A stretch of 64,000 nt of DNA from Chromobacterium violaceum ATCC 12472 (GTDB lineage Bacteria > Pseudomonadota > Gammaproteobacteria > Burkholderiales > Chromobacteriaceae). Both the position numbers and the translations under genes were made by a program. The notes beneath the pieces were generated by a model, which was not told the origin of the DNA, did no database searches, and saw only the letters and a program-made list of their open reading frames with translations. The stretch is from contig NC_005085.1 in NCBI RefSeq assembly GCF_000007705.1, positions 2,117,752-2,181,751 on the forward strand, written 5' to 3'. Positions 27,933 through 46,455 of the stretch are shown piece by piece. How positions within the stretch are numbered: the first letter of the stretch is position 1; each line of letters opens with the position of its first letter.

Positions 27933-28583
27933 ATGAGCAGTGTTTCCATCAAACGCAACAGCGGAATGCTCAGCCGGCGCTCGGCCGGTCTTGTGGGCGT
28001 TGTGGTATTCCATGCCTTGCTGATCTACGCGCTGGTGACCGGTTTGGCCCAGGGGGTGGTCAAGGTGATCCAGCAGAAAGTGGAAGTGTCGGTGATCAGC
28101 GAACCGCCGCCGCCGCCACCACCGCCGCCGAAGATCGAGAAAGTGGTGCAGCAGCCGACGGCGCCGAAGCCGCAGGCCTACGTGCCGCCGGTGGTCAATC
28201 CGCCGCCGATGGTGCAATCGCAGAACGCGATCCAATCGGTGACGGCCGATCCGACGCCGCAGCCGGCGCCGACGCCGACCCCGGCGGTGGAAGCGCCGAA
28301 GGGCCCGGTTTCGGCCAAGGCCAACTGCAGCCATCTGGAAGCGCCGGAGTATCCGAGCAAGGCCCAGGAAGACGAAATCCAGGGCGTGGTGTCGGTGGTG
28401 TTCAGCGTGGGCGCCAGCGGCAAGTTCGGCGGCGAGGCCAGCTTCAATTTCAGCGGCGACATTCCGCCGCGCTACCGCAGCAGCTTCAAGTCGGCGATCA
28501 CGGCCGCACTGCAGGGTTACACCTGCCAGGCCAATTCCCAGCTGAAACAGGAATTCGGCTTCAAACTCGACTCTGGCGCCTAA
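27933..28583 (+). CDS. tonB: Energy transducer TonB (unit 1)
   Basis: 216 aa. An N-terminal basic stretch and one membrane helix (about 17-40, GLVGVVVFHALLIYALVTGLAQ) anchor it in the inner membrane. A proline-rich periplasmic spacer (poly-Pro then KIEKVVQQPTAPKPQAYVPP) leads to a C-terminal TonB-like domain with two cysteines (ANCSHLEAPEYPSKA..., GYTCQAN). It carries proton-motive energy from ExbBD to receptors. From base 28020 on the gene is nearly identical to the copy at 44133; before that point the two differ clearly. GGGAAGG lies nine bases before the chosen ATG. Confidence 0.88.
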   Translation: MSSVSIKRNSGMLSRRSAGLVGVVVFHALLIYALVTGLAQGVVKVIQQKVEVSVISEPPPPPPPPPKIEKVVQQPTAPKPQAYVPPVVNPPPMVQSQNAIQSVTADPTPQPAPTPTPAVEAPKGPVSAKANCSHLEAPEYPSKAQEDEIQGVVSVVFSVGASGKFGGEASFNFSGDIPPRYRSSFKSAITAALQGYTCQANSQLKQEFGFKLDSGA

Positions 28584-28622
28584 GTCGCCCAGGGCATCTC
28601 AAGACACAAAGGAGCAAATACC

Positions 28623-29369
28623 ATGACCAAGATCACTCGCGCATTTCTGGGCAAAGTCCTGGGCGCAGCCGGCCTGCTGACCGCACTGCCGGCGCTGGCG
28701 GCGGAGACCGTCAGCACTTCCAATCCGTACGGCATCGACGCGCTGTGGTCGCAAGGCGACTTCGTGGCGAAGGGCACGCTGATCATTCTGCTGATCATGT
28801 CGGCGTCCACCTGGTACGTCGGCATCGTCAAGCTGCTGGAACAACGCCGCCTGATCAAGCAGGGGCATGAACTGCTGGCCCACCACGGCGTGGACCTGCA
28901 AAAGGCCGCCAGCGAGCTGGCGGACGAAGGGATGTACAGCGCGGTGGCGCAAGCCGGCATTGAAGCCGCCGCCGAGCACAAGGGCGAGCTGGCCAACCGC
29001 GTGGACCTGAATACCTGGGTGGCGATGGCGATTTCGGACGCGGTGGACTCCGCCAGCCATCACATGCAGAACGGTCTGTCGGTGATCGCCACCGTGGGCT
29101 CCACCGCGCCGTTCGTCGGCCTGTTCGGCACGGTGTGGGGCATCTACCACGCGCTGGTGAAGATCGGCACTTCGGGCCAGGCTTCCATCGATAAAGTGGC
29201 CGGCCCGGTGGGCGAAGCGCTGATCATGACCGCGATCGGCCTGGCGGTGGCGGTGCCGGCGGTGCTGGGATACAACTGGCTGGTGCGGCGCAACAAGCTG
29301 GTGCTGGACAACGTGCGCGTGGTGTCGGGCCGTCTGCACGCCAGCCTGCTGAACAACCCGAGCCGGTAA
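28623..29369 (+). CDS. exbB: Biopolymer transport protein ExbB (unit 1)
   Basis: 248 aa inner-membrane proton-channel subunit of the TonB motor. A signal-like N-terminus (KVLGAAGLLTALPALAAE) is followed by three membrane helices near residues 50-70, 155-180 and 197-220, with the conserved VGSTAPFVGLFGTVWGIYHAL and GPVGEALIMTAIGLAVAVPAVLGYN segments. AAAGGAG lies nine bases before the ATG. The protein is identical to the one encoded at 44826. Confidence 0.93.
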   Translation: MTKITRAFLGKVLGAAGLLTALPALAAETVSTSNPYGIDALWSQGDFVAKGTLIILLIMSASTWYVGIVKLLEQRRLIKQGHELLAHHGVDLQKAASELADEGMYSAVAQAGIEAAAEHKGELANRVDLNTWVAMAISDAVDSASHHMQNGLSVIATVGSTAPFVGLFGTVWGIYHALVKIGTSGQASIDKVAGPVGEALIMTAIGLAVAVPAVLGYNWLVRRNKLVLDNVRVVSGRLHASLLNNPSR

Positions 29370-29375
29370 TCGAAG

Positions 29376-29819
29376 ATGGCCCGTTACACGCGATTTGGCC
29401 ACGGCAAGGGCGACGAGGACCAGGTGCTGTCTGCGATCAACACCACGCCGCTGGTGGACGTGATGCTGGTGCTGCTGATCATCTTTCTGATCACGGTGCC
29501 GGTGGTGACGCAAACGGTGAAGATGACGCTGCCGAAAGAACAGAACATCCCGACGCAGACCAAGCCGGAGAACGTGGTGCTGGGGGTGGGGCCGGACAGC
29601 CGCATCTACTGGAACATGTCGCCGGTGAAGGATCAGCAGGAATTGCTGGCGCGGCTGGTGAAGGAAGCGAAGAAGGATCCGCAGCCGGAAGTGCACATCC
29701 GGGGCGACGCGACGGCGCGGTACGCGCCGATCGGCCGCATCGTGCTGGCGGTGCAGCAGGCGGGGATCGTGAAGATCGCGTTCATCACGGAGCCGCCGGC
29801 GCCCGGCGGCGGGGAGTAG
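29376..29819 (+). CDS. exbD: Biopolymer transport protein ExbD, first (unit 1)
   Basis: 147 aa. One membrane helix near the N-terminus (NTTPLVDVMLVLLIIFLITVPV), whose Asp in PLVDVMLVLL is the proton-carrying residue of ExbD/TolR proteins, then a periplasmic domain. It starts six bases after exbB. Identical to the copy at 45579. Confidence 0.92.
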   Translation: MARYTRFGHGKGDEDQVLSAINTTPLVDVMLVLLIIFLITVPVVTQTVKMTLPKEQNIPTQTKPENVVLGVGPDSRIYWNMSPVKDQQELLARLVKEAKKDPQPEVHIRGDATARYAPIGRIVLAVQQAGIVKIAFITEPPAPGGGE

Positions 29820-29829
29820 GAGAAGAGAC

Positions 29830-30252
29830 ATGGCGATGAATGTGGGGTCGTCGGGAGAAGACGACCTGATGATGGAGATCAACACCACGCCGCTGATCGA
29901 CGTGATGTTGGTGATGCTGATCATGCTGATCATCACGATACCGATCCAGACGCACGCGGTGAAGCTGGACATGCCGGTGAACACGCCGTCGAAGGTGCAG
30001 GTGAAGCCGGTGGTGGTGCAGATCGACATTGCGCCGGACAACGGGGTGATGTGGAACGGCGAGCGTTTGGCGAACCGCGAGGCGTTGGAGGCGAAGCTGT
30101 CGGCGGCGGGGAAGTCGGAGCCGCAGCCGGAGCTGCACATCAAGCCGAACAAGGATGCGAGTTACGCGCCGGTGGCGATGGTGCTGGCGGAGTCGCAGCG
30201 TTTGGGTTTGACGAAGCTGGGCATCGTCGGATCGGAACAGTTTGTGCAATGA
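29830..30252 (+). CDS. exbD: Biopolymer transport protein ExbD, second (unit 1)
   Basis: 140 aa. Same layout as the first ExbD: NTTPLIDVMLVMLIMLIITIPI carries the conserved membrane Asp, followed by a periplasmic domain with AESQRLGLTKLGIVG near the end. It differs from its neighbour, so the motor may contain ExbD heterodimers. AGGAGAAGAG precedes the ATG. The last codons differ from the second copy, marking the end of the direct repeat. Confidence 0.92.
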   Translation: MAMNVGSSGEDDLMMEINTTPLIDVMLVMLIMLIITIPIQTHAVKLDMPVNTPSKVQVKPVVVQIDIAPDNGVMWNGERLANREALEAKLSAAGKSEPQPELHIKPNKDASYAPVAMVLAESQRLGLTKLGIVGSEQFVQ

Positions 30253-30312: not shown

Positions 30313-30370
30313 TCCGTAATCGACAACAAGACCGGATGACGCCGCGATGGCCACATCGGAAAACACACAT

Positions 30371-31477
30371 ATGAACATACGTCTTTGCCTGTCCGCCCTG
30401 TTTCTTCTATCGCTAGCCGCCTGTGGCAAGGGCGGCGCCGAGCATGCGTCCGCTTCCGGCAAGAACGCGTCGGCGCCGGCGGCGCGCCGCTTGTCCGGCG
30501 CCGATGTGGTGCGGGCGGAAGTGAGGCCGCTCGCCGCCGCCATTCCGTTCACCGGCTCGCTGAACGCGCTGACCAGCAGCGCGGTGGCGTCCGAGGTCGA
30601 CGCCAACGTTCGCGAAGTGAAGGTGCGCGAAGGGGAGAGTGTGCGTCGCGGCCAGTTGCTGGCGGTGCTGGACGCCGAGTCGTTGGGGCAGTCGGTGGCG
30701 GAGCAGAACGCCCAGCTCGACAACTCCAAGGCGCGGCTGAAGCTGGCCAAGGTCAAGCTGGACAAGCAGCGCGAGCTGTTGGGCAAGGGTTTCATTTCCC
30801 AGGTGGCGTTCGACGAGCTGGAAAGCGATTACCGAGTGAAAGAAGGCGAGCTTCGCGCGCAGTCGGCCCAGTTGGCGCGGGCTCAGCGCTCGCTGGCCGA
30901 TGCCCAGGTGAAATCGCCGATAGACGGCGTGGTCTACGAGCGCAAGATCAATCCGGGCGAAGTGGCCAGCCGCAATATGAAGCTGTTTTCGGTGGCCGAC
31001 CTGGCGGTGCTGGAGATCGCCGCCACCGTGCCCTCGAGACTGGTGGGGCAGGTCAGGGTGGGCATGCCGGCTTCGTTCAGCGTCGACGGCCGCGACGTCC
31101 AAGAGCATGGCGAAGTGGTGCGCATCAATCCGGTGGCCATCCCCGGCACCCGCAGCTTCACGCTGTTCGTGCGGGTGCGGAACACGGACGGGCACTTGAA
31201 GGTGGGCCAGTTCGCCAAGGGCGGGGTGGTGGTGCGCGAGGTGAAGGACAAGGTGGTGGTGCCCATCGCCGCGGTGCGCGACATCGACGCCAAGCCCTGG
31301 GTGATGGTGGTGGAGAAGGGCCGGTTGGCGAAGCGGCCGGTAACCGTGGAGTTGCGCGCGGAAAACGAGCGCCAGGCCGCGATTGGTGGCGTGGCCGCCG
31401 GCGCCAGCGTGATCGTCGGCGAACTGCTGGGCAGCAAGGCGGGCGACCCGGTCAGCCTGCCGGCCCGACTGGGTTGA
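30371..31477 (+). CDS. RND efflux periplasmic adaptor (membrane fusion lipoprotein)
   Basis: 368 aa. A lipoprotein signal with lipobox LAAC places Cys18 as the acylated residue. The rest is a classic membrane-fusion protein: biotinyl-lipoyl half-motifs (ASEVDANVREVKVREGESVRRGQLLAVLD and SPIDGVVYERKINPGE) flank an alpha-helical hairpin (about 95-160), followed by beta-barrel and membrane-proximal domains. It couples the inner-membrane pump encoded 10 bases downstream to an outer-membrane channel. No outer-membrane factor gene is present here. The start at 30371 was chosen because it gives a normal lipoprotein signal; ATG 30347 adds eight residues. Confidence 0.88.
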   Translation: MNIRLCLSALFLLSLAACGKGGAEHASASGKNASAPAARRLSGADVVRAEVRPLAAAIPFTGSLNALTSSAVASEVDANVREVKVREGESVRRGQLLAVLDAESLGQSVAEQNAQLDNSKARLKLAKVKLDKQRELLGKGFISQVAFDELESDYRVKEGELRAQSAQLARAQRSLADAQVKSPIDGVVYERKINPGEVASRNMKLFSVADLAVLEIAATVPSRLVGQVRVGMPASFSVDGRDVQEHGEVVRINPVAIPGTRSFTLFVRVRNTDGHLKVGQFAKGGVVVREVKDKVVVPIAAVRDIDAKPWVMVVEKGRLAKRPVTVELRAENERQAAIGGVAAGASVIVGELLGSKAGDPVSLPARLG

Positions 31478-31487: not shown

Positions 31488-34400
31488 ATGTGGCTGACCC
31501 GCGTAAGCGTGCGCAACCCGTATTTCGCCGCAGTATTGATGATGACGCTGATGGTGCTGGGCCTGTTCTCCTGGCAGAAGCTGGCCGTGGAGGAAATGCC
31601 CGACGTCCGTCTGCCGATGGCAGTGGTGGAGACGCGCTATACCGGCGCCTCGCCCGAGGTGGTGGAGAGCGAGGTGAGCAAGCCGCTGGAGGAGGCGCTC
31701 AACACCGTCAACGGCATCAAGGAAATCCGTTCCTATTCTTCCGAGGGCAGCTCTTTCGTGGTGGCCGAGTTCGAGCTGTCCGTCGACCCCATCGTCGCGG
31801 TGCAGAACGTGCGCGACAAGGTGGCGTCGGTGCAGGGGCAGTTCCGCCGCGAGATCGGCACGCCGTCGGTGTCCCAGGTGGACCCCAACGACAAGCCCAT
31901 GCTGTCGCTGTCGCTGACCTCCAGCCAGACCCGGCCGCGCGAGCTGAGCAGCTGGGCGGAGAACGTGCTGAAGAAGCGGCTGCAGATGGTGGAGGGCGTC
32001 GGCGACGTCAGCCTGATCGGCGCGGTGAAACGGGAAATCCGCATCGACATCGATCCGGTGCGGCTGGAAGGCTCCGGCCTGTCGCTGGCCGATGTGGCCG
32101 ACGCCATCAAGGCCGCCAACCAGGATTTCCCGGCCGGCAACGTGTCCACCGCGCACAAGGAGTGGGCGATCCGGGTGTCCGGCAAGCTGAAGTCCGCCGA
32201 CGACTTCGCCGCGCTGGCTGTCGGCTATCGCAACGGCACGCCGATCCGGCTGGACGACATCGCGGCGGTGGCGGACACCCAGGCGGAACAGGACAGCGTG
32301 TCGCTGGTCAATGGTCAGCCCGGCCTGGGCGTGGACGTCAAGGCCGCGCGCGGTGCCAACGAGGTGGCGGTGGCCGCCGGGGTCAAGAAACTGCTGACCG
32401 AACTGAAGCCGCAGATGCCGGCCGGTACCGAGCTGCGCTACACCTATGATTCCGCCGAGGACGTGAAGAAGGCGCTGAGCAGCGTGGAGTCGATGCTGCT
32501 GGAAGGCGCGGGGCTGACCATCCTGATCGTGTTCCTGTTCCTGGGCAGCTGGCGCAGCACGGTGATCACCGGCTTGACGCTGCCGGTGGCGCTGGTGGGC
32601 ACGCTGTTCGCGATGCAGTTGATGGGCTTCACGCTGAACATGCTGACGCTGTTGGCGCTGTCGCTGTCCATCGGCCTGCTGATCGACGACGCCATCGTGG
32701 TGCGGGAAAACATCGTCCGCCACGCCGCGCTTGGCAAGAGCCATTACCAGGCCGCGCTGGACGGCACCAATGAGATCGGCCTGGCGGTGCTGGCCACCAC
32801 GCTGACCGTGGTGGCGGTGTTCCTGCCGGTGGGCTTCATGAGCGGCATCATCGGCCGCTTCTTCCATCAGTTCGGCCTCACCGTCGCGGTGGCGGTGCTG
32901 ATCTCGATGTTCGTCAGCTTCTCGCTGGACCCGATGCTGTCGTCGATCTGGCACGACCCCCACCACCACGGCGATCGCCACTGCGGCCCGCTGGGTCGGA
33001 TGCTGGACTGGTTCGAAACCTCGCTGGACCGCCTGTCCGAGCGCTACGCGGCAGTGATCCGCTGGGTGCTCGGCCATCGCAAGACCACATTGGCGCTGGC
33101 GCTGGGCGTGACCGTGGCCAGCTTCATGCTGGTGCCCAGGATAGGCGGCGAATTCGTGCCGGTGCGCGACAGCGGCAAGATCAACGTGGTGTACCAGACC
33201 GCGTCGGGCTCCTCGCTGGAATACACGACGCTGAAGGGCAAGGAACTGGCGGCCGCGCTGTCCGGCATCAAGGAAATCCAGACCGTGTCGCTGGATGTCG
33301 GCGCCGGCAACTTCGGGGCCGGCAAGAACGACGGCCAGCTGACGCTGGACATCGGCGACAAGCGCTCGCGCCAGCGCAGCCTGGACCAGGTCATCGCCGA
33401 CGCCCGCAAGCGGGTGCAGCCGGTGGCCGGCGTGCTGATCAAGGCGGTGGCCAACGACGAGCAGCAGGGCAAGCCCATCTTCATCGGCCTGCGCGGCTCC
33501 AATCTGGCCGAGCTGGACGCGGTGTCGCGCGACATCATGGCCCGCATCGCCAAGGTGAAGGGCGTCAAGGACATCGAGTCCAACCTGACCGAAGGCGATC
33601 CGTCGCTTAGCCTGACGCTGAAGCGCGACGCGGCGCTGAGCCTGGGCGTGGATCTCAACCGGGTGGGCAACCTGCTGTCCATGTTGCTGGCCGGCAATGT
33701 GGTGACGACCTGGGAGGCGCCGGACGGCGAGAATTACGACGTGCGGCTCCGGGTGCCGAAGGACGAGCGCCGCCAGGAGCTGCTGGACCAGCTGAAGGTG
33801 GCCGGCAACCGCGACGAAAACGGCGCGGCGCAGATGGTGCCGCTGTCCACGCTGATCGAGACCCGGCAGGGCGTCAGCCCGCGCCAGATCAAGCGCACCA
33901 ATATGATGCGCGAGATCAGCATCCTGGCCAATGTGGAGGGCCGCGACGTCGGCTCGGCGATGGCCGACATCGACAAGCTGCTGGACGGCACCCAGCTGCC
34001 GCAGGGCGTGCAGCGCATGCACCGCGGCCAGCAGAAGGACATGGAGGAAACCGTGGGCAACGCGCTGCGCGCGCTGGGCCTGGGCGTGATCTTCATCTAC
34101 CTGATCCTGGCCGCGCAGTTCCGCAGCTTCACCATGCCGGTAACCATCATGGTGGCGTTGCCGCTGGCTTTCGGCGGCGTGTTCGTTGCGCTGTTCCTGT
34201 GGGGCTCCACGCTGAACATGTTCTCCATCATCGGCATCATCATGCTGATGGGCCTGGTGGCCAAGAACGGCATTCTGCTGGTGGACTTCATCAATCGCGC
34301 CCGCCAGGACGGCATGGCCCGGGAAGACGCCATCGTCGAGGCGGGCAGGGTGCGGCTGCGCCCCATCATGATGACCAGCCTGGCGATGATCTTCGGCATG

Positions 34401-34607
34401 CTGCCATTGGCGCTGGGCACCGGCGACGGTTCGGAGACCAATCGGCCGATGGCACACGCCATCATCGGCGGTCTGGCCACTTCCACGCTGTTGACCCTGC
34501 TGGTGGTGCCGGTGGTGTACACCTATCTGGACGGCCTGCGCGTCCGCATCCGCCGCCTGCTCGGCGGCCGCCGCGCGCTGGGCCTGAGCGAGGCCGGGGG
34601 CAAATAG
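31488..34607 (+). CDS. RND efflux pump inner-membrane transporter
   Basis: 1039 aa with the twelve-helix, two-large-loop layout of HAE-type RND pumps; length matches AcrB/MexB. The proton-relay pair lies in the fourth helix ([16 protein letters not shown]). The N-terminus ([22 protein letters not shown]...) and helix [17 protein letters not shown] are typical. It pumps drugs or other amphiphiles from the periplasm or membrane to a channel protein encoded elsewhere. AGGAG stands before the ATG. The two genes form an operon inside the 16-kb segment between the direct repeats. Confidence 0.92.
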
Positions 34608-35270: not shown

Positions 35271-37049
35271 ATGTGCCTGAGAAAGCCCCTGGTGGCGGCA
35301 CTGATGGTCTGGGGGAGCGTGACGCCGCTGCATGCGGCCGCCGCGGAGAAGGTGCTGCATGTGGCGTTCAGCGCGCCGGAGACCGGATTTGATCCGGCCA
35401 AGATATCCGACATCTATTCGTCCGCGGTGATCGAGCACATCTACGATCCCTTGCTGACTTTTGACTACCTGTCCCGCCCGGTGAAGGTGGTGCCCAATGT
35501 GACCACGGCGATGCCGACGGTCAGCGCCGACGGTCTGACTTACACTTTCCATTTGAAGAAGGGCATTTATTTCGCGCCTGACCCGGCGTTCAAGGGCAAG
35601 AAGCGCGAACTGACCGCCGCCGATTACGTGTACTCGATCAAGCGCCTGTCCGATCCGACGGTGGCTTCGCCGCTCAGCGATACCTTCACCGACAAGCTGG
35701 CGGGCTTGGCTGAGCTGGTGAAGAAAGCGGGCAAGGGCAAACTGGACTACGACACGGTGGTGGAAGGCGTGAAGACGCTGGACCGCTACACCTTGCAGCT
35801 CAAGTTCAAGCAGCCATTCCCATCCCTGCCTTTCCTGCTGGCCGGCAGCTGGGTGGAGGGACAGGCGCGGGAAGTGGTCGATGCCTATGGCGACAATACC
35901 AATGCCCACCCGGTCGGCACCGGGCCTTATGTTTTGAAGGACTGGAAGCCGGGCAACAGCATGACGCTGGTGCGCAATCCCAATTTCCGCCGAGAGGTCT
36001 TCCATTATGGCGCGGCCGCCGATGCCGGCGATCAACGGATCGCCGCGCGGATGAACGGCAAGCGCTATCCGCAGATAGACCGGATCGAGGTGTCGGTGAT
36101 CCAGGAGGAACAGCCGGCCTGGCTGGCCTTCAAGAGTGGGGAGTTGGATCTCGTAGGCATTCCTCAGCCTTTGATCCGGCAAGTCCTGCGGCTGGACCCC
36201 AAGAATCCCTGGCGCGCGGAGCTGAAGCCGGAACTGAAAAACAAGGGCGTTCAGCTTAGCCGCGAGCTGGGCGAGGAGGTCACCTTCTACGCGTTCAATA
36301 TGAAGGACCCGGTCGTCGGCGGGTACGGCAAGGACAAGATCGCGCTGCGCCGCGCGATTTCCATGGCTTTCGACACCAACGAAACGATACGCGACATCCG
36401 CCGCAACCAGGCGGTGCAGGTGCAGTACATCGTGCCGCCCAACGTGGCCGGGCACAATCCCGATTTCCGCGCCGCCTATCCTTACAACCCGCCCTTGGCC
36501 AATGCCTTGCTGGACCAGTTCGGCTACAAGATCGGCGCCGACGGCTACCGCCATGCTCCGGACGGCAAGCCCGTCGTCGTCGATTTCCTGACCGGCCCCA
36601 CCGCCATCGACAAGCAGTGGAACGAGTATTGGCAGAAGGCCTTCGACCGCATCAAGGTGAAGGTGAATTTCCGCGTGATGCAGTGGAACGAGCAGGTGAA
36701 GGCGCAGCGCGACTGCAAGTTCGGCATGAACGGCGGCGCCTGGAGCGCGGATTACCCCGACGGCGACAACTTCACGCAACTGCTGTACGGCGGCAATGTC
36801 GGCAACTCCAACAACGCCTGCTACCAGTCCCCGCGCTACGACAAGCTCTACGAACAGTCGCGCCTGCTGCCGGACGGACCGGAGCGCAACCGCCTGTACG
36901 ACCAGATGAACAAGATCGTGGCCGGCGACACGCCGTGGATGTTCAGCGACATTCGTTTCACCAACGCGCTGGCGCAGCCGTGGGTGAGGGGGTTCAAGCA
37001 CCACCCCAACTTCAATGCCATCTGGCGTTTCCTGGACGTAGAAAAATAA
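35271..37049 (+). CDS. Peptide ABC transporter substrate-binding protein (family 5)
   Basis: 592 aa, periplasmic; a signal peptide ends near LHAAAA. The family 5 signature appears as the N-terminal GFDPAKISDIYSSAVIEHIYDPLLTFDY and the later NAHPVGTGPYVLKDWKPGNSMTLVRNPNF. Such proteins (OppA, DppA) bind oligopeptides or dipeptides; some bind other cargo such as nickel or antibiotics, so the exact ligand is open. AGGAG is 11 bases before the ATG. It leads a four-gene operon with two permeases and a fused double ATPase. Confidence 0.88.
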   Translation: MCLRKPLVAALMVWGSVTPLHAAAAEKVLHVAFSAPETGFDPAKISDIYSSAVIEHIYDPLLTFDYLSRPVKVVPNVTTAMPTVSADGLTYTFHLKKGIYFAPDPAFKGKKRELTAADYVYSIKRLSDPTVASPLSDTFTDKLAGLAELVKKAGKGKLDYDTVVEGVKTLDRYTLQLKFKQPFPSLPFLLAGSWVEGQAREVVDAYGDNTNAHPVGTGPYVLKDWKPGNSMTLVRNPNFRREVFHYGAAADAGDQRIAARMNGKRYPQIDRIEVSVIQEEQPAWLAFKSGELDLVGIPQPLIRQVLRLDPKNPWRAELKPELKNKGVQLSRELGEEVTFYAFNMKDPVVGGYGKDKIALRRAISMAFDTNETIRDIRRNQAVQVQYIVPPNVAGHNPDFRAAYPYNPPLANALLDQFGYKIGADGYRHAPDGKPVVVDFLTGPTAIDKQWNEYWQKAFDRIKVKVNFRVMQWNEQVKAQRDCKFGMNGGAWSADYPDGDNFTQLLYGGNVGNSNNACYQSPRYDKLYEQSRLLPDGPERNRLYDQMNKIVAGDTPWMFSDIRFTNALAQPWVRGFKHHPNFNAIWRFLDVEK

Positions 37050-37071
37050 GCGGGGAGCGAGGAGAATCATC

Positions 37072-38010
37072 ATGTCCGCATTCATCATCCGCCGGCTGCT
37101 GCAAATGATCCCGACCCTGTTCGGGGTGATGCTGCTGGTATTCATCCTGTTCACGCTGGTGGGCGGCGATCCGTCGCTGGTGCTGGCCGGCAAGCATTTC
37201 TCGGCCGAGGTGCTGGCGCACATCCGCGCCCAATTGGGTCTGGACAAGAGCCTGCCGGAACAATTTCTGTTGTTTGTCCATCAAGTGCTGACGCTGGACT
37301 TCGGCACTTCCTGGTCCACCCAGCAGCCGGTGTCCGACATCATCGGCAGCCGCGTCGGGCCGTCGCTGACGCTGACCGGCGCCATGCTGGTGGTCGATCT
37401 GCTGGTCGCCATTCCATTGGCGGCGCTGGTCGCGTACTTCCGCGGCGGCCTGACCGATCACATCGTCACCATTTCCTGCACCGTGGCCATGTCCATCAGC
37501 GCGCTGATCTACATCATCGCCGGCCAGTTTTTCCTCGGCTTCAAGCTGGGCTGGTTTCCGGTGCGCGGCTGGGGGGATTCGTTCTGGGTCAATCTATTCG
37601 TCTACGTGCCGCTGCCCTTGCTGCTGGGCTTGATGGTGTCGCTCGGACCGGACATCCGTTTCTATCGCAGCTTCTTCGTCGAGGAACTGGGCCAGGACTA
37701 TGTGCGCACCGCGCGGGCCAAAGGTTTGTCCGAACGCCAGATCATGCTGAAGCACGTGCTGCGCAACGCGCTGATTCCGGTGGTGACCAGCGTGATGATG
37801 TCCTTGCCGTACATGTTGCTGGGCGCGCTGGTGCTGGAGAGCTTCTTCGGCATTCCCGGCATGGGCAACGAGGTGGTGCAGGCGGTGAACAAGAGCGATT
37901 TCCCGGTGATCAAGGCCATCACCATCTATATCGCCATCGCCACCATGGTGTTCAACCTGTTGGGCGACCTGGTCTACAAGTGGATCGATCCGCGCGTGCA
38001 ACTGAAGTAA
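37072..38010 (+). CDS. Peptide ABC transporter permease (DppB/OppB type)
   Basis: 312 aa with about six membrane helices. The EAA loop is ELGQDYVRTARAKGLSERQIMLKHVLRNALIPV, as in DppB/OppB. It opens with FIIRRLLQMIPTLFGVMLLVFILFTLVGGDPS, the normal start of the family. AGGAG precedes the ATG; 22 bases separate it from the binding protein. Confidence 0.92.
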   Translation: MSAFIIRRLLQMIPTLFGVMLLVFILFTLVGGDPSLVLAGKHFSAEVLAHIRAQLGLDKSLPEQFLLFVHQVLTLDFGTSWSTQQPVSDIIGSRVGPSLTLTGAMLVVDLLVAIPLAALVAYFRGGLTDHIVTISCTVAMSISALIYIIAGQFFLGFKLGWFPVRGWGDSFWVNLFVYVPLPLLLGLMVSLGPDIRFYRSFFVEELGQDYVRTARAKGLSERQIMLKHVLRNALIPVVTSVMMSLPYMLLGALVLESFFGIPGMGNEVVQAVNKSDFPVIKAITIYIAIATMVFNLLGDLVYKWIDPRVQLK

Positions 38011-38026
38011 GCGGAGGAGAACAATC

Positions 38027-39085
38027 ATGACGACATTGCAGAATACCGCCGGCGCCGCGCCGGCCGCGCCGTCCCGCAGCCTGTGGGGCCTGGGATGGCA
38101 GCGCCTGAAGCGCAATAAGGTGGGTTTTATTTCGATGTGGATCGTGCTGGCCTATCTGCTGGTCTCGATCGGCGGCTGGTTCAATCTGGTGGGGGCGCAC
38201 TGGACGGACGAGGTGGGTGTCCCTTATGCGCCGCCAAGCTGGGTCAATGAGTCCCCGGACGATGTGTTGCCGCCGGAGCCGACGGCTAAGGCCGCTGCCG
38301 CGCCCACTGTCGAACTGAGCCGCGCCGAGGATCCGATCGGCAAGCAGCTGTCCGAGGCGGAGAAGCATGTCGGCGAATACGCCGACCACACGCCGCCGCG
38401 GCAGGAGCGACTGCCGTTCGGCGGCGATCTGCAGGGCCGGGACGTGATCCAGAAAGCGTTGAAGGGCACGTCCACGTCCATCTTCGTCGGTGTGTTCGGC
38501 GCGGTGTTTTCTCTGCTGATCGGCTGCGCGCTGGGCGCGGTGTCCGGCTATTTCGGCGGCAAGACCGACGATTTCCTCAACTGGTTCTACAGCGTGTTCA
38601 CTTCGGTGCCTGACATGCTGCTGCTGCTGTCCTTCGCCGCGGTGTCCGGCCGCGGCATCACCACCATCATTTCGGTGATGGCGCTGACCAGCTGGACCGG
38701 CACCTACCGCCTGGTGCGCGCCGAGTACCTGAAGCTGAAAGGCCGCGAGTACGTGCAGGCGGCGGACGCCATCGGCGCCGGCAGCAGCCGGAAAATGTTT
38801 GTCCATATCCTGCCCAACCTCTCCCACCTGCTGCTGGTGCAGTTCTCCTTGCTGACGGTGGCGCTGATCAAGTACGAGGCCATTCTGTCCTTCCTCGGCT
38901 TCGGCGTCGGCGTGCGCGAAGTGAGCCTGGGTTCGATGCTGGCCGAAGCGCCGACCGAGCTGATCCAGGGCTACTGGTGGCAGATGCTGGCGGTGACCAT
39001 CGCCATGTCGGTGCTGGTGACGGCGTTCAGCCTGCTGGTGGATGCTTTGCGCGACGCGCTGGACCCGCGCGCGGCGGCCAAGTGA
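38027..39085 (+). CDS. Peptide ABC transporter permease (DppC/OppC type)
   Basis: 352 aa. An N-terminal membrane helix (about 33-55) is followed by a periplasmic insert (about 60-135), then the core helices with the EAA loop LKLKGREYVQAADAIGAGSSRKMFVHILPNLSHLL. The insert makes it longer than typical DppC (about 300 aa) and resembles the YejE/OppC long form. GGAGGAG precedes the ATG. Confidence 0.9.
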   Translation: MTTLQNTAGAAPAAPSRSLWGLGWQRLKRNKVGFISMWIVLAYLLVSIGGWFNLVGAHWTDEVGVPYAPPSWVNESPDDVLPPEPTAKAAAAPTVELSRAEDPIGKQLSEAEKHVGEYADHTPPRQERLPFGGDLQGRDVIQKALKGTSTSIFVGVFGAVFSLLIGCALGAVSGYFGGKTDDFLNWFYSVFTSVPDMLLLLSFAAVSGRGITTIISVMALTSWTGTYRLVRAEYLKLKGREYVQAADAIGAGSSRKMFVHILPNLSHLLLVQFSLLTVALIKYEAILSFLGFGVGVREVSLGSMLAEAPTELIQGYWWQMLAVTIAMSVLVTAFSLLVDALRDALDPRAAAK

Positions 39086-39106
39086 GCGGGATGAGGAGAA
39101 ATGGAT

Positions 39107-40810
39107 ATGAGCGATAACAAAACCCTGCTTTCGGTCCGCAACCTGCGGGTGCGTTTCCGCCAGGAGGACGGCGGCCGCTTCGAGGCGCTGAAGGGCGTCA
39201 GTTTCGACATTCCGGCGCACCGCACGGTGGCGCTGGTCGGCGAATCGGGTTCCGGCAAATCGGTGACGTCGATGGCCATCATGCAGCTGCTGCCGCCGCA
39301 ATCGAGCGAGATCGATCCGGCGTCGGAGCTGCGCTTCGACGGCCGCGACCTGCTGAAGCTGAGCGCGGCGGAGCTGCGCCGGCTGCGCGGCAAGGACATC
39401 GCGATGATCTTCCAGGAGCCGATGAGCTCTTTGAACCCGGTGTTCACCGTCGGCGAGCAGATCGTCGAGACGCTGACGCTGCACGCCGGGCTGAGCCGGA
39501 GCGCGGCGTGGAAGCGGGCGGTGGAGCTGCTGCGCGAGGTGGGTCTGCCGGAGCCGGAGAAGCGGGTGAAGAGCTACCCGCACGAACTGTCCGGCGGCCA
39601 GCAGCAGCGGGTGATGATCGCCATCGCCATCGCCTGCGAGCCCAAGCTCTTGATCGCCGACGAGCCGACCACCGCGCTGGATGTCACGATTCAGAAGCAG
39701 ATCCTGCAGCTGATCGCCGATCTGCAGAAGAAGCACGGCATGTCGGTGCTGTTCATCACCCACGACCTGGGGGTGGTGGGCGAGTTCGCCGACGAGGTGA
39801 TCGTGATGCGCCACGGCGTGATCCGCGAGCAGGGCACGGTGAAGCAGATCTTCGAAGATCCGCAGGACGCCTACACCAAGGCGCTGCTGTCGTGCCGGCC
39901 GCACCTGGACCGCCGCCCGGAGCGGCTGGCGGTGATCGACGACTTCCTGCAGCCGGGCGGCTACGTGGAGCCGGCGGAGCGGACGCGCGGCTACGCGGCG
40001 GGCGACGAGATCATTCTGGACGTGCAGGGGCTGTGCAAGAGCTTCGACATCCGCGAAGGCCTGTTCGGCAAGCGCCAGTTCCACGCGGTGCGGGACGTGT
40101 CGTTCAAGCTGGCGCGCGGCAAGACGCTGGGCATCGTCGGCGAGTCGGGCTCGGGCAAGACCACGGTGGGGCTGACGCTGGTGCGGCTGCACCAGGCGAC
40201 GGCGGGCAAGGCCTTGTTCCACGGCCAGGACCTGATCGGCATGAGCGCCAAGGCCTTCCACGCCTACAAGAAGCGGATCCAGATCATCTTCCAGAACCCG
40301 TACGCGTCGCTGAACCCGCGCTTCACGGTGGAGCAGATCCTGACCGAGCCGATGCTGCTGCACGGCATTGGCCAGGACGCCGGCCAGCGGCGCCGGCTGG
40401 CGCAGGACCTGCTGGACAAGGTGGGGCTGCCGGCGGGCGCGCTGGCCAAGTACCCGCACGAGTTCTCCGGCGGCCAGCGGCAGCGGATCGCGATCGCGCG
40501 CTGCCTGACCTTGAAGCCGGAAGTGCTGATCTGCGACGAATCGGTGTCGGCGCTGGACGTGTCGGTGCAGGCGCAGGTGCTGAACCTGCTGCAGGACCTG
40601 CAGGACGAGTACAAGCTGTCCTACCTGTTCATTTCGCACGATCTGGCGGTGGTGAAGCACATCTCGGACCAGGTGCTGGTGATGAACAAGGGCCAGGTGG
40701 TGGAGCAGGCGGACGCGGACGTGATCTACCGCGAGCCGAAGGACGGCTACACCAAGAAGCTGCTGGGGGCGATCCCGCAGGGGTGGAACCCGGCTCTGGC
40801 GCTGGCGTAG
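39107..40810 (+). CDS. Peptide ABC transporter, fused two-domain ATPase
   Basis: 567 aa, two ABC ATPase domains in one chain as in YejF and GsiA, replacing separate DppD and DppF. Domain 1: Walker A GESGSGKS (45-52), signature LSGGQQQR; domain 2: Walker A GESGSGKT (345-352), signature FSGGQRQR; each has its own Walker B ([24 protein letters not shown]). Each domain ends in the family's oligopeptide-transporter C-terminal region. ATG 39107 is eight bases after AGGAG; ATG 39101 is only two bases from it. A terminator follows. Confidence 0.93.
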
Positions 40811-41242: not shown

Positions 41243-41340
41243 CAGAGTCATGCCCATGGGATGGTCGTGGCTCGAATGCCGTCACGCCAGCCGTAGAACT
41301 GGCGGATGGAATACGGATAAGAGCAAAGGAGAGTTCCGTG

Positions 41341-43947
41341 ATGAGAAAGAAACAGCTGGTCGTGGCCTTGGCCATGGCGGGCATAGGCGTCAACGCGCCT
41401 ATGGCATGGGCCGCGGATGAGGCGGCGTCGGGAGAGTTGGATCGGGTGGAGGTGACCGGCTCCAATATCAAGCGCAGCATCAAGCAGGAAAAGGCGCTGC
41501 CGGTGACGATAGTCCGCACCGAGGACATGACCAAGCAAGGCTTCACCACGGTCGAGCAGGTGGTCAACTCATTGGCCAGCAACCAGTCCAATCTGGTTGG
41601 CGCGTCTTCCGTGCAATCCGTCAGCGGCGGCGCGTCATATGCCGGCTTGAGAGGTTTTGATCCGCAATACACCTTGGTGCTGCTGGATGGCCGCCGAGTC
41701 GCCAACCAGGCGATTTCCGGCGTCGCAACGGATTTGAACGCCATCCCGCTGTCGGCAATAGACCGGATCGAGGTGTTGCGAGACGGCGCGTCGGCCTTGT
41801 ACGGCAGTGACGCCATCGGCGGCGTGATGAACTTCATCACCAAGAAAAGCTACCAAGGGTTGACGATTTCCGGCGAGGCGCAGGCGACACAGCACAAAGG
41901 CGGCGATTCGGCCAATGTCAGCTTGCTGGGCGGTGTGGGCGATCTTGCGAAGGATGGCTGGAATGCGTACGGCGTACTGTCTTATCAAAAAAACAAGGCG
42001 ATCAAGACCATAGATCGCGATTTCGCCACCAAGAACCAATCGTTGAGCAGCATCACCTATCCGGCCAACTTCCTCTATCAGGCAGCGGGCAAGCCCGGGG
42101 ATGGCAATGTCTACAACGCCGCCATGCCGGGCTGCCGGCCGCCTTACACCACGCCCAGGGATGCAACCAGCTGCGGCGAAAAGACCTGGCTGTTCATGGA
42201 CCTGACGCCGGAAGTGGAGCAGTTCACCGCCAACGGTAAGCTTAGCAAGCAGTTTGGCGACCATATGCTGACAGCGCAGTATTTGGGCGCCCGCAATATC
42301 AGCACCACCCGCATCGGTCCGACGCCGATGCAGTCCATTGCCACGCTGACGGCAGGCGTCAACAAGTACTTCCCTACCGTGCTGCCGGATGGCTCGCCGG
42401 TGACGCCGGGCGCCAAGGCGGTGCTGAACCTGCGCAGTGATCCCCTGGGGCCAAGAACCACCAAGAGCACATCGGATACCCACCGCTTGGCCGTCAATCT
42501 GGAAGGCCTGCTCGGTGGCTGGGATTATCGTACCGGCGCCGCTTATTCGTCGAACCAGACCACCATCAATTACAAGAGCGGCTATGTGAATGGCGACAAG
42601 ATCGAGCAGGCGTTGCTGAACGACCAGATCAATCCTTTCGGTGATTCGCCCGCCGGCGCGTGGGAGAACGTGGAGTTGAAGGGGGATGGCTGGATATCCA
42701 AGTACGAGACGGCATTGGCGGATTTCAAGGCGAGCAAGGAGCTGTTCGCCCTGCCGGCGGGCAATTTGGCGGCGGCATTCGGTGGCGAGCTGCGCCATGA
42801 GAAGCTGGACAGCCAGATTCAGGATCTGGCCCAGTACGCGGTGGGGTCCGGCATTGCGGACTCCAAGTCGACCAAGGGTAGCCGCAATATTTCGGCATTG
42901 TACCTTGAGGCCGATGTGCCTGTAATCAAGGGGTTGGACATACAGCTGGCCGCGCGCTACGACAAGTACAGCGATTTCGGCAAGGCTTTCAATCCCAAGG
43001 TGGCATTCAAGTATCAGCCCGCCCCGCAAATTCTGTTCCGTGGTTCCGCCAGCCGGGGATTCCGCGCGCCATCGCTGTTCGATGTCTTCCAGCCGGATGC
43101 GAAAACCTATACCAACGGCAACAATCTGAATGACCCGGTTCTTTGTCCAAACGGAACACCCGCCAACGGCGGTGACAAGACCGATTGCGGCACCACCTTC
43201 TTCGCCAAGCAGGGCGGTAATCGCAATCTGGAGCCGGAGCGCGCCAGCTCGCTCACTTTCGGTGTTGTCATCGAGCCGATCAGGGAGATCACAGCCAGCG
43301 TCGACTTCTGGTGGACCACCATCAATAAAGTGATAGGCGTATTGGACAACGACTTGATCTTCAACGATCCGGTCAAGTATGCAAACCGCTTTGTCCGGGT
43401 GAATCCGAATGACCCGTATTCCAAGCTTGACTACGTTTCCACTCCGACCGAGAACTTGGGCAATCTGAGCGCGGCGGGTTTGGATACCTCGTTCTCCTGG
43501 CGGCTGCCCAGAAGCCGCCTTGGCAATTTCACCATCAATCTGGACGGAACCTATACCTCCAAGTTCGTCCAGCAGGTGGAGGCGGGAGGGATCTATTACT
43601 CACGTTTGAGCCAATGGAACAATGGCTTGCAACCAGTAGTTCGCTGGAAACATTCGCTGGGCCTCAACTGGTCTCTGGGAAATTGGAGCGCATTGTTGGC
43701 CCAGAACTATGTTTCCGGTTACACCGACTACAAGGCAACGCATAGCGTCAAGCCGTATTCCAACTGGAACCTGTCATCTACCTATCTATGGCAGAAGAAG
43801 TTGAGCGTGACGGCGGGGGTGAAGAATCTGTTTGACCAGGAGCCGCCTTTCAGCAATCAGAACAAATTCTTCCAGAAAGGATTTGATCCGATTCTGGCCG
43901 ATCCTGTCGGTCGAGCCTTTTTCTTGAAAGCGTCATACAAACTCTAG
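41341..43947 (+). CDS. TonB-dependent outer-membrane receptor 2
   Basis: 868 aa. Signal peptide (about 1-24), TonB-box-like LDRVEVTGSNIKRS, plug domain with QYTLVLLDGRRVANQ...DRIEVLRDGASALYGSDAIGGVMNFITKK, and a barrel that ends in GRAFFLKASYKL. It is clearly a paralogue of receptor 1 along its whole length but with many substitutions and loop differences, so the two probably recognise different ligands. The ATG at 41341 is nine bases after AAGGAG; a GTG at 41338 is the alternative. It heads the second unit with tonB-exbB-exbD-exbD. Confidence 0.9.
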   Translation: MRKKQLVVALAMAGIGVNAPMAWAADEAASGELDRVEVTGSNIKRSIKQEKALPVTIVRTEDMTKQGFTTVEQVVNSLASNQSNLVGASSVQSVSGGASYAGLRGFDPQYTLVLLDGRRVANQAISGVATDLNAIPLSAIDRIEVLRDGASALYGSDAIGGVMNFITKKSYQGLTISGEAQATQHKGGDSANVSLLGGVGDLAKDGWNAYGVLSYQKNKAIKTIDRDFATKNQSLSSITYPANFLYQAAGKPGDGNVYNAAMPGCRPPYTTPRDATSCGEKTWLFMDLTPEVEQFTANGKLSKQFGDHMLTAQYLGARNISTTRIGPTPMQSIATLTAGVNKYFPTVLPDGSPVTPGAKAVLNLRSDPLGPRTTKSTSDTHRLAVNLEGLLGGWDYRTGAAYSSNQTTINYKSGYVNGDKIEQALLNDQINPFGDSPAGAWENVELKGDGWISKYETALADFKASKELFALPAGNLAAAFGGELRHEKLDSQIQDLAQYAVGSGIADSKSTKGSRNISALYLEADVPVIKGLDIQLAARYDKYSDFGKAFNPKVAFKYQPAPQILFRGSASRGFRAPSLFDVFQPDAKTYTNGNNLNDPVLCPNGTPANGGDKTDCGTTFFAKQGGNRNLEPERASSLTFGVVIEPIREITASVDFWWTTINKVIGVLDNDLIFNDPVKYANRFVRVNPNDPYSKLDYVSTPTENLGNLSAAGLDTSFSWRLPRSRLGNFTINLDGTYTSKFVQQVEAGGIYYSRLSQWNNGLQPVVRWKHSLGLNWSLGNWSALLAQNYVSGYTDYKATHSVKPYSNWNLSSTYLWQKKLSVTAGVKNLFDQEPPFSNQNKFFQKGFDPILADPVGRAFFLKASYKL

Positions 43948-44132: not shown

Positions 44133-44786
44133 ATGACAAGTATCACAGCCAAAGGAGTGGGAGGCCCTCCGCCTCGGCGACGATTCGCCGGCCTGGCGGG
44201 CGTCATCCTGTTCCACGCCGCGCTGATCTACGCGCTGGTGACCGGTTTGGCCCAGGGGGTGGTCAAGGTGATCCAGCAGAAAGTGGAAGTGTCGGTGATC
44301 AGCGAACCGCCGCCGCCGCCACCGCCGCCGCCGAAGATCGAGAAAGTGGTGCAGCAGCCGACGGCGCCGAAGCCGCAGGCCTACGTGCCGCCGGTGGTCA
44401 ATCCGCCGCCGATGGTGCAATCGCAGAACGCGATCCAATCGGTGACGGCCGATCCGACGCCGCAGCCGGCGCCGACTCCGGCCCCGGCGGTGGAAGCGCC
44501 GAAGGGCCCGGTTTCGGCCAAGGCCAACTGCAGCCACCTGGAAGCGCCGGAGTATCCGAGCAAGGCCCAGGAAGACGAAATCCAGGGCGTGGTGTCGGTG
44601 GTGTTCAGCGTGGGCGCCAGCGGCAAGTTCGGCGGCGAGGCCAGCTTCAATTTCAGCGGCGACATTCCGCCGCGCTACCGCAGCAGCTTCAAGTCGGCGA
44701 TCACGGCCGCACTGCAGGGTTACACCTGCCAGGCCAATTCCCAGCTGAAACAGGAATTCGGCTTCAAACTCGACTCTGGCGCCTAA
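44133..44786 (+). CDS. tonB: Energy transducer TonB (unit 2)
   Basis: 217 aa; same layout as the unit 1 TonB. The N-terminal 30 codons are different in sequence (MTSITAKGVGGPPPRRRFAGLAGVILFHA), after which the protein is the same apart from one Thr/Ala change in the PTPAPAV segment. The start is uncertain: ATG 44133 lacks a close ribosome site (GAGGGA is 13 bases away), and ATG 44082 and 44094 are in frame upstream. Confidence 0.85.
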   Translation: MTSITAKGVGGPPPRRRFAGLAGVILFHAALIYALVTGLAQGVVKVIQQKVEVSVISEPPPPPPPPPKIEKVVQQPTAPKPQAYVPPVVNPPPMVQSQNAIQSVTADPTPQPAPTPAPAVEAPKGPVSAKANCSHLEAPEYPSKAQEDEIQGVVSVVFSVGASGKFGGEASFNFSGDIPPRYRSSFKSAITAALQGYTCQANSQLKQEFGFKLDSGA

Positions 44787-44825
44787 GTCGCCCAGGGCAT
44801 CTCAAGACACAAAGGAGCAAATACC

Positions 44826-45572
44826 ATGACCAAGATCACTCGCGCATTTCTGGGCAAAGTCCTGGGCGCAGCCGGCCTGCTGACCGCACTGCCGGCGCTG
44901 GCGGCGGAGACCGTCAGCACTTCCAATCCGTACGGCATCGACGCGCTGTGGTCGCAAGGCGACTTCGTGGCGAAGGGCACGCTGATCATTCTGCTGATCA
45001 TGTCGGCGTCCACCTGGTACGTCGGCATCGTCAAGCTGCTGGAACAACGCCGCCTGATCAAGCAGGGGCATGAACTGCTGGCCCACCACGGCGTGGACCT
45101 GCAAAAGGCCGCCAGCGAGCTGGCGGACGAAGGGATGTACAGCGCGGTGGCGCAAGCCGGCATTGAAGCCGCCGCCGAGCACAAGGGCGAGCTGGCCAAC
45201 CGCGTGGACCTGAATACCTGGGTGGCGATGGCGATTTCGGACGCGGTGGACTCCGCCAGCCATCACATGCAGAACGGTCTGTCGGTGATCGCCACCGTGG
45301 GCTCCACCGCGCCGTTCGTCGGCCTGTTCGGCACGGTGTGGGGCATCTACCACGCGCTGGTGAAGATCGGCACTTCGGGCCAGGCTTCCATCGATAAAGT
45401 GGCCGGCCCGGTGGGCGAAGCGCTGATCATGACCGCGATCGGCCTGGCGGTGGCGGTGCCGGCGGTGCTGGGATACAACTGGCTGGTGCGGCGCAACAAG
45501 CTGGTGCTGGACAACGTGCGCGTGGTGTCGGGCCGTCTGCACGCCAGCCTGCTGAACAACCCGAGCCGGTAA
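44826..45572 (+). CDS. exbB: Biopolymer transport protein ExbB (unit 2)
   Basis: 248 aa, identical in sequence to the ExbB at 28623, including the ribosome site and the gap to the next gene. Three membrane helices and the ExbB/TolQ motifs are as described there. Having two identical ExbB genes suggests dosage or recent gene conversion, not functional specialisation. Confidence 0.93.
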   Translation: MTKITRAFLGKVLGAAGLLTALPALAAETVSTSNPYGIDALWSQGDFVAKGTLIILLIMSASTWYVGIVKLLEQRRLIKQGHELLAHHGVDLQKAASELADEGMYSAVAQAGIEAAAEHKGELANRVDLNTWVAMAISDAVDSASHHMQNGLSVIATVGSTAPFVGLFGTVWGIYHALVKIGTSGQASIDKVAGPVGEALIMTAIGLAVAVPAVLGYNWLVRRNKLVLDNVRVVSGRLHASLLNNPSR

Positions 45573-45578
45573 TCGAAG

Positions 45579-46022
45579 ATGGCCCGTTACACGCGATTTG
45601 GCCACGGCAAGGGCGACGAGGACCAGGTGCTGTCTGCGATCAACACCACGCCGCTGGTGGACGTGATGCTGGTGCTGCTGATCATCTTTCTGATCACGGT
45701 GCCGGTGGTGACGCAAACGGTGAAGATGACGCTGCCGAAAGAACAGAACATCCCGACGCAGACCAAGCCGGAGAACGTGGTGCTGGGGGTGGGGCCGGAC
45801 AGCCGCATCTACTGGAACATGTCGCCGGTGAAGGATCAGCAGGAATTGCTGGCGCGGCTGGTGAAGGAAGCGAAGAAGGATCCGCAGCCGGAAGTGCACA
45901 TCCGGGGCGACGCGACGGCGCGGTACGCGCCGATCGGCCGCATCGTGCTGGCGGTGCAGCAGGCGGGGATCGTGAAGATCGCGTTCATCACGGAGCCGCC
46001 GGCGCCCGGCGGCGGGGAGTAG
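45579..46022 (+). CDS. exbD: Biopolymer transport protein ExbD, first (unit 2)
   Basis: 147 aa, identical to the ExbD at 29376. The membrane Asp lies in NTTPLVDVMLVLL. Six bases after exbB. Confidence 0.92.
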   Translation: MARYTRFGHGKGDEDQVLSAINTTPLVDVMLVLLIIFLITVPVVTQTVKMTLPKEQNIPTQTKPENVVLGVGPDSRIYWNMSPVKDQQELLARLVKEAKKDPQPEVHIRGDATARYAPIGRIVLAVQQAGIVKIAFITEPPAPGGGE

Positions 46023-46032
46023 GAGAAGAGAC

Positions 46033-46455
46033 ATGGCGATGAATGTGGGGTCGTCGGGAGAAGACGACCTGATGATGGAGATCAACACCACGCCGCTGAT
46101 CGACGTGATGTTGGTGATGCTGATCATGCTGATCATCACGATACCGATCCAGACGCACGCGGTGAAGCTGGACATGCCGGTGAACACGCCGTCGAAGGTG
46201 CAGGTGAAGCCGGTGGTGGTGCAGATCGACATTGCGCCGGACAACGGGGTGATGTGGAACGGCGAGCGTTTGGCGAACCGCGAGGCGTTGGAGGCGAAGC
46301 TGTCGGCGGCGGGGAAGTCGGAGCCGCAGCCGGAGCTGCACATCAAGCCGAACAAGGATGCGAGTTACGCGCCGGTGGCGATGGTGCTGGCGGAGTCGCA
46401 GCGTTTGGGTTTGACGAAGCTGGGCATCGTCGGATCGGAACAGTTTGTTCAGTAA
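46033..46455 (+). CDS. exbD: Biopolymer transport protein ExbD, second (unit 2)
   Basis: 140 aa, identical protein to the one at 29830 although the final codons use different bases (CAG TAA instead of CAA TGA), which is where the direct repeat ends. A terminator follows 22 bases later. Confidence 0.92.
   Translation: MAMNVGSSGEDDLMMEINTTPLIDVMLVMLIMLIITIPIQTHAVKLDMPVNTPSKVQVKPVVVQIDIAPDNGVMWNGERLANREALEAKLSAAGKSEPQPELHIKPNKDASYAPVAMVLAESQRLGLTKLGIVGSEQFVQ

What the first reader, a model, noticed from the sequence alone, without database searches (positions are those of the whole stretch)
28020..46448. Two tonB-exbB-exbD-exbD modules homogenised to near identity while their receptors diverged
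A 2226-base tract is the same at 28020-30245 and 44223-46448 apart from four bases, including silent sites and intergenic gaps. Just outside, the tonB 5' ends and both receptor genes are much more different, and the sharp edges fall inside tonB and in the last codons of exbD. That pattern indicates gene conversion (or a very recent duplication) keeping the energy module identical while the receptors specialise. It argues that both receptors use the same motor.
Basis: partly seen in the sequence, partly recalled or inferred. Interest (0 to 1): 0.7.

Follow-up and report, generated by a model that had tools for sequence, protein, structure and literature searches.

The report
Twin Ton motors kept identical
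Two copies of a four-gene motor that powers nutrient uptake are repeatedly overwritten with each other's sequence in this bacterium and its relatives, while the outer-membrane receptors beside them stay different; it is a clear new example of a known kind of gene-copy homogenisation.

Summary
In detail: windows 28020-30245 and 44223-46448 differ at 4 of 2226 bases, with 1911 identical in a row. I compared 19 genomes of the genus. In G000, G006 and G017 the two modules lie 16.2 kb apart in the same gene order. Copies are 99.8-100% identical within a genome but 88-91% between these species; dS is 0-0.012 within, 0.19-0.30 between. Module trees pair copies by genome, yet the TonB N-terminus pairs by slot across species. 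So both slots predate these species and were homogenised separately in each lineage: concerted evolution by gene conversion, not recent duplication or assembly collapse. Natural products of recombination agree. G003 carries the chimera expected from a crossover deleting the DNA between the motors. In G009 one copy lost exbB, one exbD and most of the other, and its leftover tonB has drifted to 91.6%. That one motor serves both receptors is plausible (same TonB-box region; receptor 1 persists where its motor is gone) but untested. New member of a known kind.

The parts
28020..30245 (+). homogenised tract, copy 1 (tonB body, exbB, exbD, exbD)
   Evidence: 2226 bp, 4 mismatches to copy 2
44223..46448 (+). 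homogenised tract, copy 2
25104..27776 (+). TonB-dependent receptor 1 (slot 1); true start probably downstream of this first start codon
   Evidence: Plug PF07715 and beta-barrel PF00593; TonB-box region LDRVEVTGSNIKRS
27933..28583 (+). tonB copy 1; the first 29 codons are slot-specific, the rest homogenised
   Evidence: ORF; C-terminal domain fold matches TonB
28623..29369 (+). exbB copy 1
   Evidence: PF01618 107.5 bits; solved ExbB relatives
29376..29819 (+). exbD-a copy 1
   Evidence: PF02472 95.8 bits
29830..30252 (+). exbD-b copy 1
   Evidence: PF02472 104.5 bits
30347..34607 (+). RND efflux operon between the copies (adaptor 30347-31477, AcrB-like pump 31488-34607)
   Evidence: PF00873 for the pump; the adaptor is named from its ORF and position and was not scanned
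35271..40810 (+). Dpp/Opp-like peptide ABC transporter between the copies (binding protein, two permeases, fused ATPases)
   Evidence: binding protein matches OppA/DppA/NikA models below their cut-offs; permeases and ATPases named from ORFs and position, not scanned; syntenic in relatives
41338..43947 (+). TonB-dependent receptor 2 (slot 2)
   Evidence: PF07715, PF00593; TonB-box region LDRVEVTGSNIKRS
44133..44786 (+). tonB copy 2 with the slot-2 N-terminus MTSITAKGVGGPPPRRR
44826..45572 (+). exbB copy 2, protein identical to copy 1
45579..46022 (+). exbD-a copy 2, identical to copy 1
46033..46455 (+). exbD-b copy 2, same protein as copy 1
46532..48535 (+). M13-family peptidase downstream of copy 2
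   Evidence: PF05649, PF01431
22856..24652 (-). S53-type (pro-kumamolisin) peptidase upstream of receptor 1; marks the slot-1 side in relatives
   Evidence: PF09286; syntenic

Best explanation
An old duplication gave two receptor/Ton-motor units in direct orientation about 16.2 kb apart, before the species compared here separated. Since then recombination between the two 2.2-kb motor copies has repeatedly overwritten one with the other (gene conversion), separately in each lineage, from within tonB to the end of homology at the last exbD codons. Receptors and the TonB N-terminus are too divergent to pair well and escape. The same pairing can cross over and delete the DNA between. Shown by sequence: the identity pattern, the trees, the slot-specific edges, the crossover chimera in G003, and the decay after partial loss in G009. 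Inferred: that the event is non-reciprocal and RecA-dependent; that the identical motors energise both receptors; that the locus serves uptake of peptides (from the neighbouring S53 and M13 peptidases and the Dpp-like transporter).
For: Within-genome module identity 99.8% (G000), 99.8% (G006), 100% (G017) and 98.4% (G005), against 88-91% between G000, G006 and G017. dS of exbB+exbD+exbD is 0.005, 0.012 and 0.000 within G000, G006 and G017, 0.19-0.30 between them. Tree: G000a+G000b 100/100, G006a+G006b 100/100, G017a and G017b identical; AU rejects a clade of a-copies (p=0.013) and one of b-copies (p=6.8e-8). The 26 TonB residues before the IYALV motif: slot-2 copies 85-100% alike across G000, G006, G017, G016, G009, G015, while slot 1 against slot 2 in one genome is 42-62%; the TonB body is the reverse, 99-100% within and 80-90% between G000, G006, G017, G016. 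Sliding windows over the motor: paralogues 98-100%, orthologues 75-97%; over the receptors paralogues 46-74%. Motor spacing (exbB start to start) 16,203, 16,192, 16,274 and 16,262 bp in G000, G006, G017, G016. G003: slot-1 5' flank + motor + slot-2 3' flank; the intervening binding protein and receptor 2 have no orthologue in that genome. G009: the tonB left of copy 1 is now 91.6% to copy 2. Control: the two tuf genes, a known conversion pair, are 96.4-99.1% within and 90.5-95.5% between seven of these genomes.
Against: No reads or long-read coverage could be examined, and no strain series within one species was available. Only 4 of 6 finished genomes (1-2 contigs) have two full modules; G009 and G015 have one. 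The direction and non-reciprocity of exchange are not resolved by comparing end products. Between-species dS of the motor (0.19-0.30 among G000, G006, G017) is at the low end of neighbouring single-copy genes (dppDF 0.22-0.38, RND 0.30-0.58, dppB 0.41-0.52, binding protein 0.58-1.04, M13 0.74-1.07 among G000, G006, G017, G009), so some interspecies exchange of the motor is not excluded. The AU p for the a-copies is only 0.013.
Confidence: 0.93

Rival explanations
1. Independent very recent duplication of the motor in each species.
For: It also gives near-identical copies within a genome; motors are lost in some genomes (G009, G015), so copy number is not fixed.
Against: Both slots, their gene order and a 16.2-kb spacing are shared by G000, G006, G017 and G016, and the TonB N-termini are orthologous slot by slot. 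Each new copy would have to land in the same place and in frame with the old slot-specific tonB start, which is itself homologous replacement.
Confidence: 0.04
2. Assembly artefact: one module collapsed or copied into both places.
For: In 7 of 13 draft genomes the module is missing altogether, and the contigs with the slot-1 and slot-2 receptors (14 of 14, two per genome) end 93-723 bp past the receptor, so assemblers do fail at this repeat. The third copy in draft G016 may be such an error.
Against: Four finished genomes carry two copies with different flanks; the G000 copies differ at four sites inside the tract, and the G006 and G005 copies also differ. A complete genome of C. subtsugae appears to have two exbB/exbD sets 60 locus-tag units apart (PMC12114271, passages), matching the 12-gene spacing here.
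Confidence: 0.02
3. Selection alone keeps the two motors identical.
For: The ExbB and ExbD proteins are the same, as a shared motor would need.
Against: Silent sites and intergenic gaps are identical too (dS 0-0.012), while both copies change together between species.
Confidence: 0.01

Closest known systems
Concerted evolution of tufA/tufB by gene conversion
   Same: Two separate copies more alike within than between species; measured here in seven genomes.
   Different: Single gene there; here a 2.2-kb four-gene operon segment in direct repeat only 16 kb apart, and in the four genomes compared more strongly homogenised (module 99.8, 98.4, 99.8, 100% against tuf 98.8, 98.0, 96.4, 98.9% in G000, G005, G006, G017).
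Long-lasting recurrent concerted evolution catalogue of Wang and Chen 2018 (PMC6053082; abstract, sections 6 and 8, and passages read)
   Same: Same definition; 22 of its 26 genes encode members of stable complexes; amo/hao clusters are multi-gene cases.
   Different: No ton or exb gene in its Tables 1 and 2 or main text, and no Chromobacterium in the main text.
TonB-ExbB-ExbD energy-transduction systems, including those with two exbD genes
   Same: Gene content and order; ExbB and ExbD families; TonB C-terminal fold.
   Different: Duplicated next to two receptors and homogenised; other multi-Ton bacteria known to me (recalled: Vibrio, Xanthomonas) have diverged Ton sets.

Membership tests
Concerted evolution by gene conversion | paralogues in one genome more alike than orthologues in other species | tested here: met
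   98.4-100% within; 88-91% between G000/G006/G017
Concerted evolution by gene conversion | orthology of the two slots established independently by synteny and slot-specific sequence; duplication older than the species split | tested here: met
Concerted evolution by gene conversion | silent and non-coding sites homogenised as well | tested here: met
Concerted evolution by gene conversion | recurrent in at least five species (criterion of PMC6053082) | tested here: inconclusive
   four finished genomes (G000, G005, G006, G017) plus drafts G016 and G001; drafts are weak evidence at repeats
Concerted evolution by gene conversion | transfer is non-reciprocal and recombinase-dependent | not testable with these tools
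   needs marked copies in live cells
TonB-ExbB-ExbD system | ExbB (PF01618) and ExbD (PF02472) subunits | tested here: met
   solved ExbB relatives
TonB-ExbB-ExbD system | TonB: N-terminal membrane helix, proline-rich linker, TonB C-terminal fold | tested here: met
TonB-dependent receptor | plug and barrel domains, TonB box | tested here: met
   PF07715 and PF00593 in both; strand number not tested; the TonB-box assignment by position is my inference
TonB-ExbB-ExbD system | proton-driven energy transfer to these receptors | not testable with these tools
   no experiment

The most novel reading that the evidence does not exclude
The homogenised motor is a standing recombination hub: a constant 2.2-kb homology arm beside variable receptors that lets the genus delete (G003), possibly amplify (G016, draft only), relocate (G005, copies 1.2 Mb apart and inverted) and replace receptor units while every unit stays plugged into one common motor. 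Conversion would then be part of what makes receptor slots exchangeable rather than a passive by-product.
Probability: 0.25. Interest if true: 0.65.

Novelty: new member of a known kind. Interest (0 to 1): 0.5.

Why it matters
It is a clean case of a whole molecular machine, rather than one gene, held identical between two operons while the parts it drives stay different, with natural experiments built in (loss of one motor, loss of part of one, crossover deletion). It bears on how conversion limits, and is limited by, divergence, and on whether Ton motors are shared. It has a practical cost: draft assemblies drop the motor, and RNA-seq can report it as silent. In C. subtsugae exbD/exbB genes were reported with no transcripts (PMC12114271, passages), which I think is a multi-mapping effect.

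Tried and rejected
Recent duplication, assembly collapse and selection alone: see rivals. A functional barrier at the tonB edge: rejected because the edge moves between species; in G005 both copies share the same N-terminus. Wider survey, crude because it only looks for pairs of equal ExbB score: of 250 order-level genomes (G000 included), 78 have a match at E<=1e-45, and only G000 and G043 show such pairs. The G043 pair is 92% over 2092 columns and 98.4% over 447 and was not followed. Receptor substrate: family models only give generic siderophore/haem/B12-type matches below cut-off; peptide uptake rests on neighbours. Draft contig ends: only 3 of 7 genomes (G004, G008, G018) share exact ends of 86 bases or more between the two receptor contigs; the other four share 0-21 bases at the ends and at most 35 elsewhere in the last 900, so this supports but does not prove identical repeats there. 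Literature: the listings of the searches showed no report of ton/exb homogenisation; only the held open-access library was searched, several listings were cut to the best rows, and most listed papers were not opened. First rpoB and tuf comparisons and the rpoB table mixed strands; corrected for tuf and for rpoB in the tree. Rows dropped: G043; G001b, G001c and G016c from the tree; G005 from the exbB-exbD-exbD dS table because my exbB coordinates were out of frame (its two exbD genes alone: dS 0.094, 97.6% identical). That G005 figure is higher than in the other pairs and counts as weaker homogenisation there.
Full report
THE OBSERVATION. The two tracts are as described: 28020-30245 and 44223-46448, 2226 bp, 4 mismatches, all in tonB. 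A run of 1911 bases covering the end of tonB, exbB and both exbD genes up to codon 139 of 140 is identical, gaps included. Outside, identity falls at once. Each unit is receptor - tonB - exbB - exbD - exbD. Between the units lie an RND efflux operon and a Dpp-like transporter; an M13 peptidase follows the second unit. The genome is a single contig of 4,751,080 bp, the length I recall for Chromobacterium violaceum ATCC 12472 (not confirmed by a call).

THE DECISIVE COMPARISON. The held set has 19 genomes of the genus. Six are finished (1-2 contigs: G000, G005, G006, G009, G015, G017). Four of those six have two modules; G009 and G015 have one. Of the 13 drafts, G001 and G016 show three close ExbB matches, G002, G003, G011 and G012 one, and seven none. 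In G000, G006 and G017 the two modules are 16.2 kb apart with the same genes between and around. Module identity is 99.8, 99.8 and 100% within these genomes, 88-91% between them. Synonymous distance is 0.005, 0.012 and 0 within, 0.19-0.30 between. In G005 the copies lie 1.2 Mb apart on opposite strands and are 98.4% identical, against 93-94% to G001 and G002. In the tree, copies pair by genome; clades by slot are rejected for a-copies (p=0.013) and b-copies (p=6.8e-8).

THE SLOTS ARE OLD. The TonB N-terminus behaves in the opposite way. Over the 26 residues before the IYALV motif (about residues 5-30), slot-2 copies are 85-100% alike across six genomes, whereas slot 1 against slot 2 in one genome is 42-62%. 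Receptor-2 proteins cluster with receptor-2 proteins and receptor-1 with receptor-1. In 200-column windows the paralogue curve jumps from 46-74% over the receptors to 98-100% over the motor. The slot-2 G000/G006 orthologue curve is 82-90% over the receptor and 75-97% over the motor. The other orthologue curves do rise at the motor (from 45-83% over the receptor), because those receptors differ between species, but do not reach the paralogue level. So both slots existed before G000, G006 and G017 split, and each lineage has overwritten one motor with the other since. The tuf pair, a known conversion case, is 96.4-99.1% within and 90.5-95.5% between seven of these genomes.

RECOMBINATION CAUGHT IN THE ACT. 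G003 has S53 peptidase - receptor 1 - motor - M13 peptidase, with no other window gene between. Its 5' flank matches slot 1 (74% over 155 columns to G017a) and its 3' flank slot 2 (91% over 43 columns to G000b); against the other slot there is at most an 11-base match. The intervening binding protein and receptor 2 have no orthologue in that genome (best matches 49%: for the binding protein a paralogue also seen in relatives, for receptor 2 the receptor 1 itself); the RND pump was not searched separately. Its sister G004 (rpoB 98.1%) still has a receptor 2. This is the product expected from a crossover between the motors. G009 lost exbB, exbD-a and most of exbD-b of copy 1; the tonB left behind keeps a slot-1-type start and is 91.6% identical to its partner, so homogenisation has lapsed. 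G015 shows no motor remnant after receptor 1. Receptor 1 remains a long open frame in both (874 and 872 aa), which suggests that a motor elsewhere can serve it. A third receptor of this family (57-59% to receptor 1) in G000, G006 and G017 has no motor in the 7.5-10 kb stretches fetched around it. G016 (draft) shows copy b followed by a near-duplicate of what follows copy a, and copy c preceded by a near-duplicate of receptor 2, both with many small gaps: a tandem amplification or a misassembly, unresolved.

DRAFT ASSEMBLIES. In all seven drafts without the module (G004, G007, G008, G010, G013, G014, G018) the contigs with the slot-1 and slot-2 receptors, 14 of 14, end 93-723 bp past the receptor. 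That is what collapse of a near-identical repeat gives. In 3 of the 7 the two contigs share exact ends of 86 bases or more; in 4 they do not. The shortest contigs I met among these were 3.4 kb, so a collapsed 2.2-kb contig may have been filtered out (inference).

A PUBLISHED TRACE. The RNA-seq paper on C. subtsugae ATCC 31532 (PMC12114271; passages read) reports no transcripts for ExbD and MotA/TolQ/ExbB genes U6115_15075-15080 and U6115_15135-15140. Its wording ('respectively') leaves open which tag is which gene; I read them as two exbB/exbD sets. The gap of 60 tag units equals 12 genes at 5 units a gene, the exbB-to-exbB distance here. Reads were aligned with BWA-MEM and counted with featureCounts; treatment of multi-mapping reads is not stated in the passages seen. 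I take the silence to be a multi-mapping effect of identical copies (inference).

WHAT IT IS. Concerted evolution of a duplicated Ton motor by gene conversion. Wang and Chen 2018 (PMC6053082; abstract, sections 6 and 8, and passages read) list 26 recurrently converted prokaryotic genes, mostly in complexes; ton and exb genes are not among them. [quoted passage not shown] That both receptors use the common motor, and that the locus takes up peptides, are inferences.

Noticed in passing
window 25104-27776; G003/G004 and G010/G013: Receptor-1 barrels differ strongly between sister species (rpoB 98.1% for G003/G004; G010 and G013 also sister in the tree), while the upstream region, plug part and 3' end stay more alike: mosaic replacement of the barrel in slot 1.
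   Followed up: partly
L043, L044, L045 (G016 contigs C12 and C27): A third motor copy with duplicated flanks full of small gaps: tandem amplification of the 16-kb unit or misassembly.
   Followed up: partly
PMC12114271, genes U6115_15075-15080 and U6115_15135-15140: ExbB/ExbD genes reported without transcripts in C. subtsugae; probably reads lost to multi-mapping between identical copies.
   Followed up: partly
G000:C1:89446-91998 (L157), outside the window: A third receptor of the same family (59% to receptor 1) with no Ton motor in the 7.5 kb fetched around it; counterparts in G006 and G017 likewise.
   Followed up: no
window 20198-24652: S53-type peptidase paralogues, about 72% identical in DNA over 1.4 kb and not homogenised: a nearby contrast to the motors.
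   Followed up: no
G009, between dppDF and receptor 2 (L141): About 11 kb of extra DNA between the transporter and receptor 2 that has no match to the window genes used.
   Followed up: no
L057, L058 (G043, another family of the order): Two motor copies about 197 kb apart, 92% and 98.4% identical in two stretches: possibly an independent case.
   Followed up: no
seven draft genomes: G004, G007, G008, G010, G013, G014, G018: The motor is absent from the held assemblies although both receptor contigs break where it should start; gene-content surveys could wrongly call it missing.
   Followed up: partly
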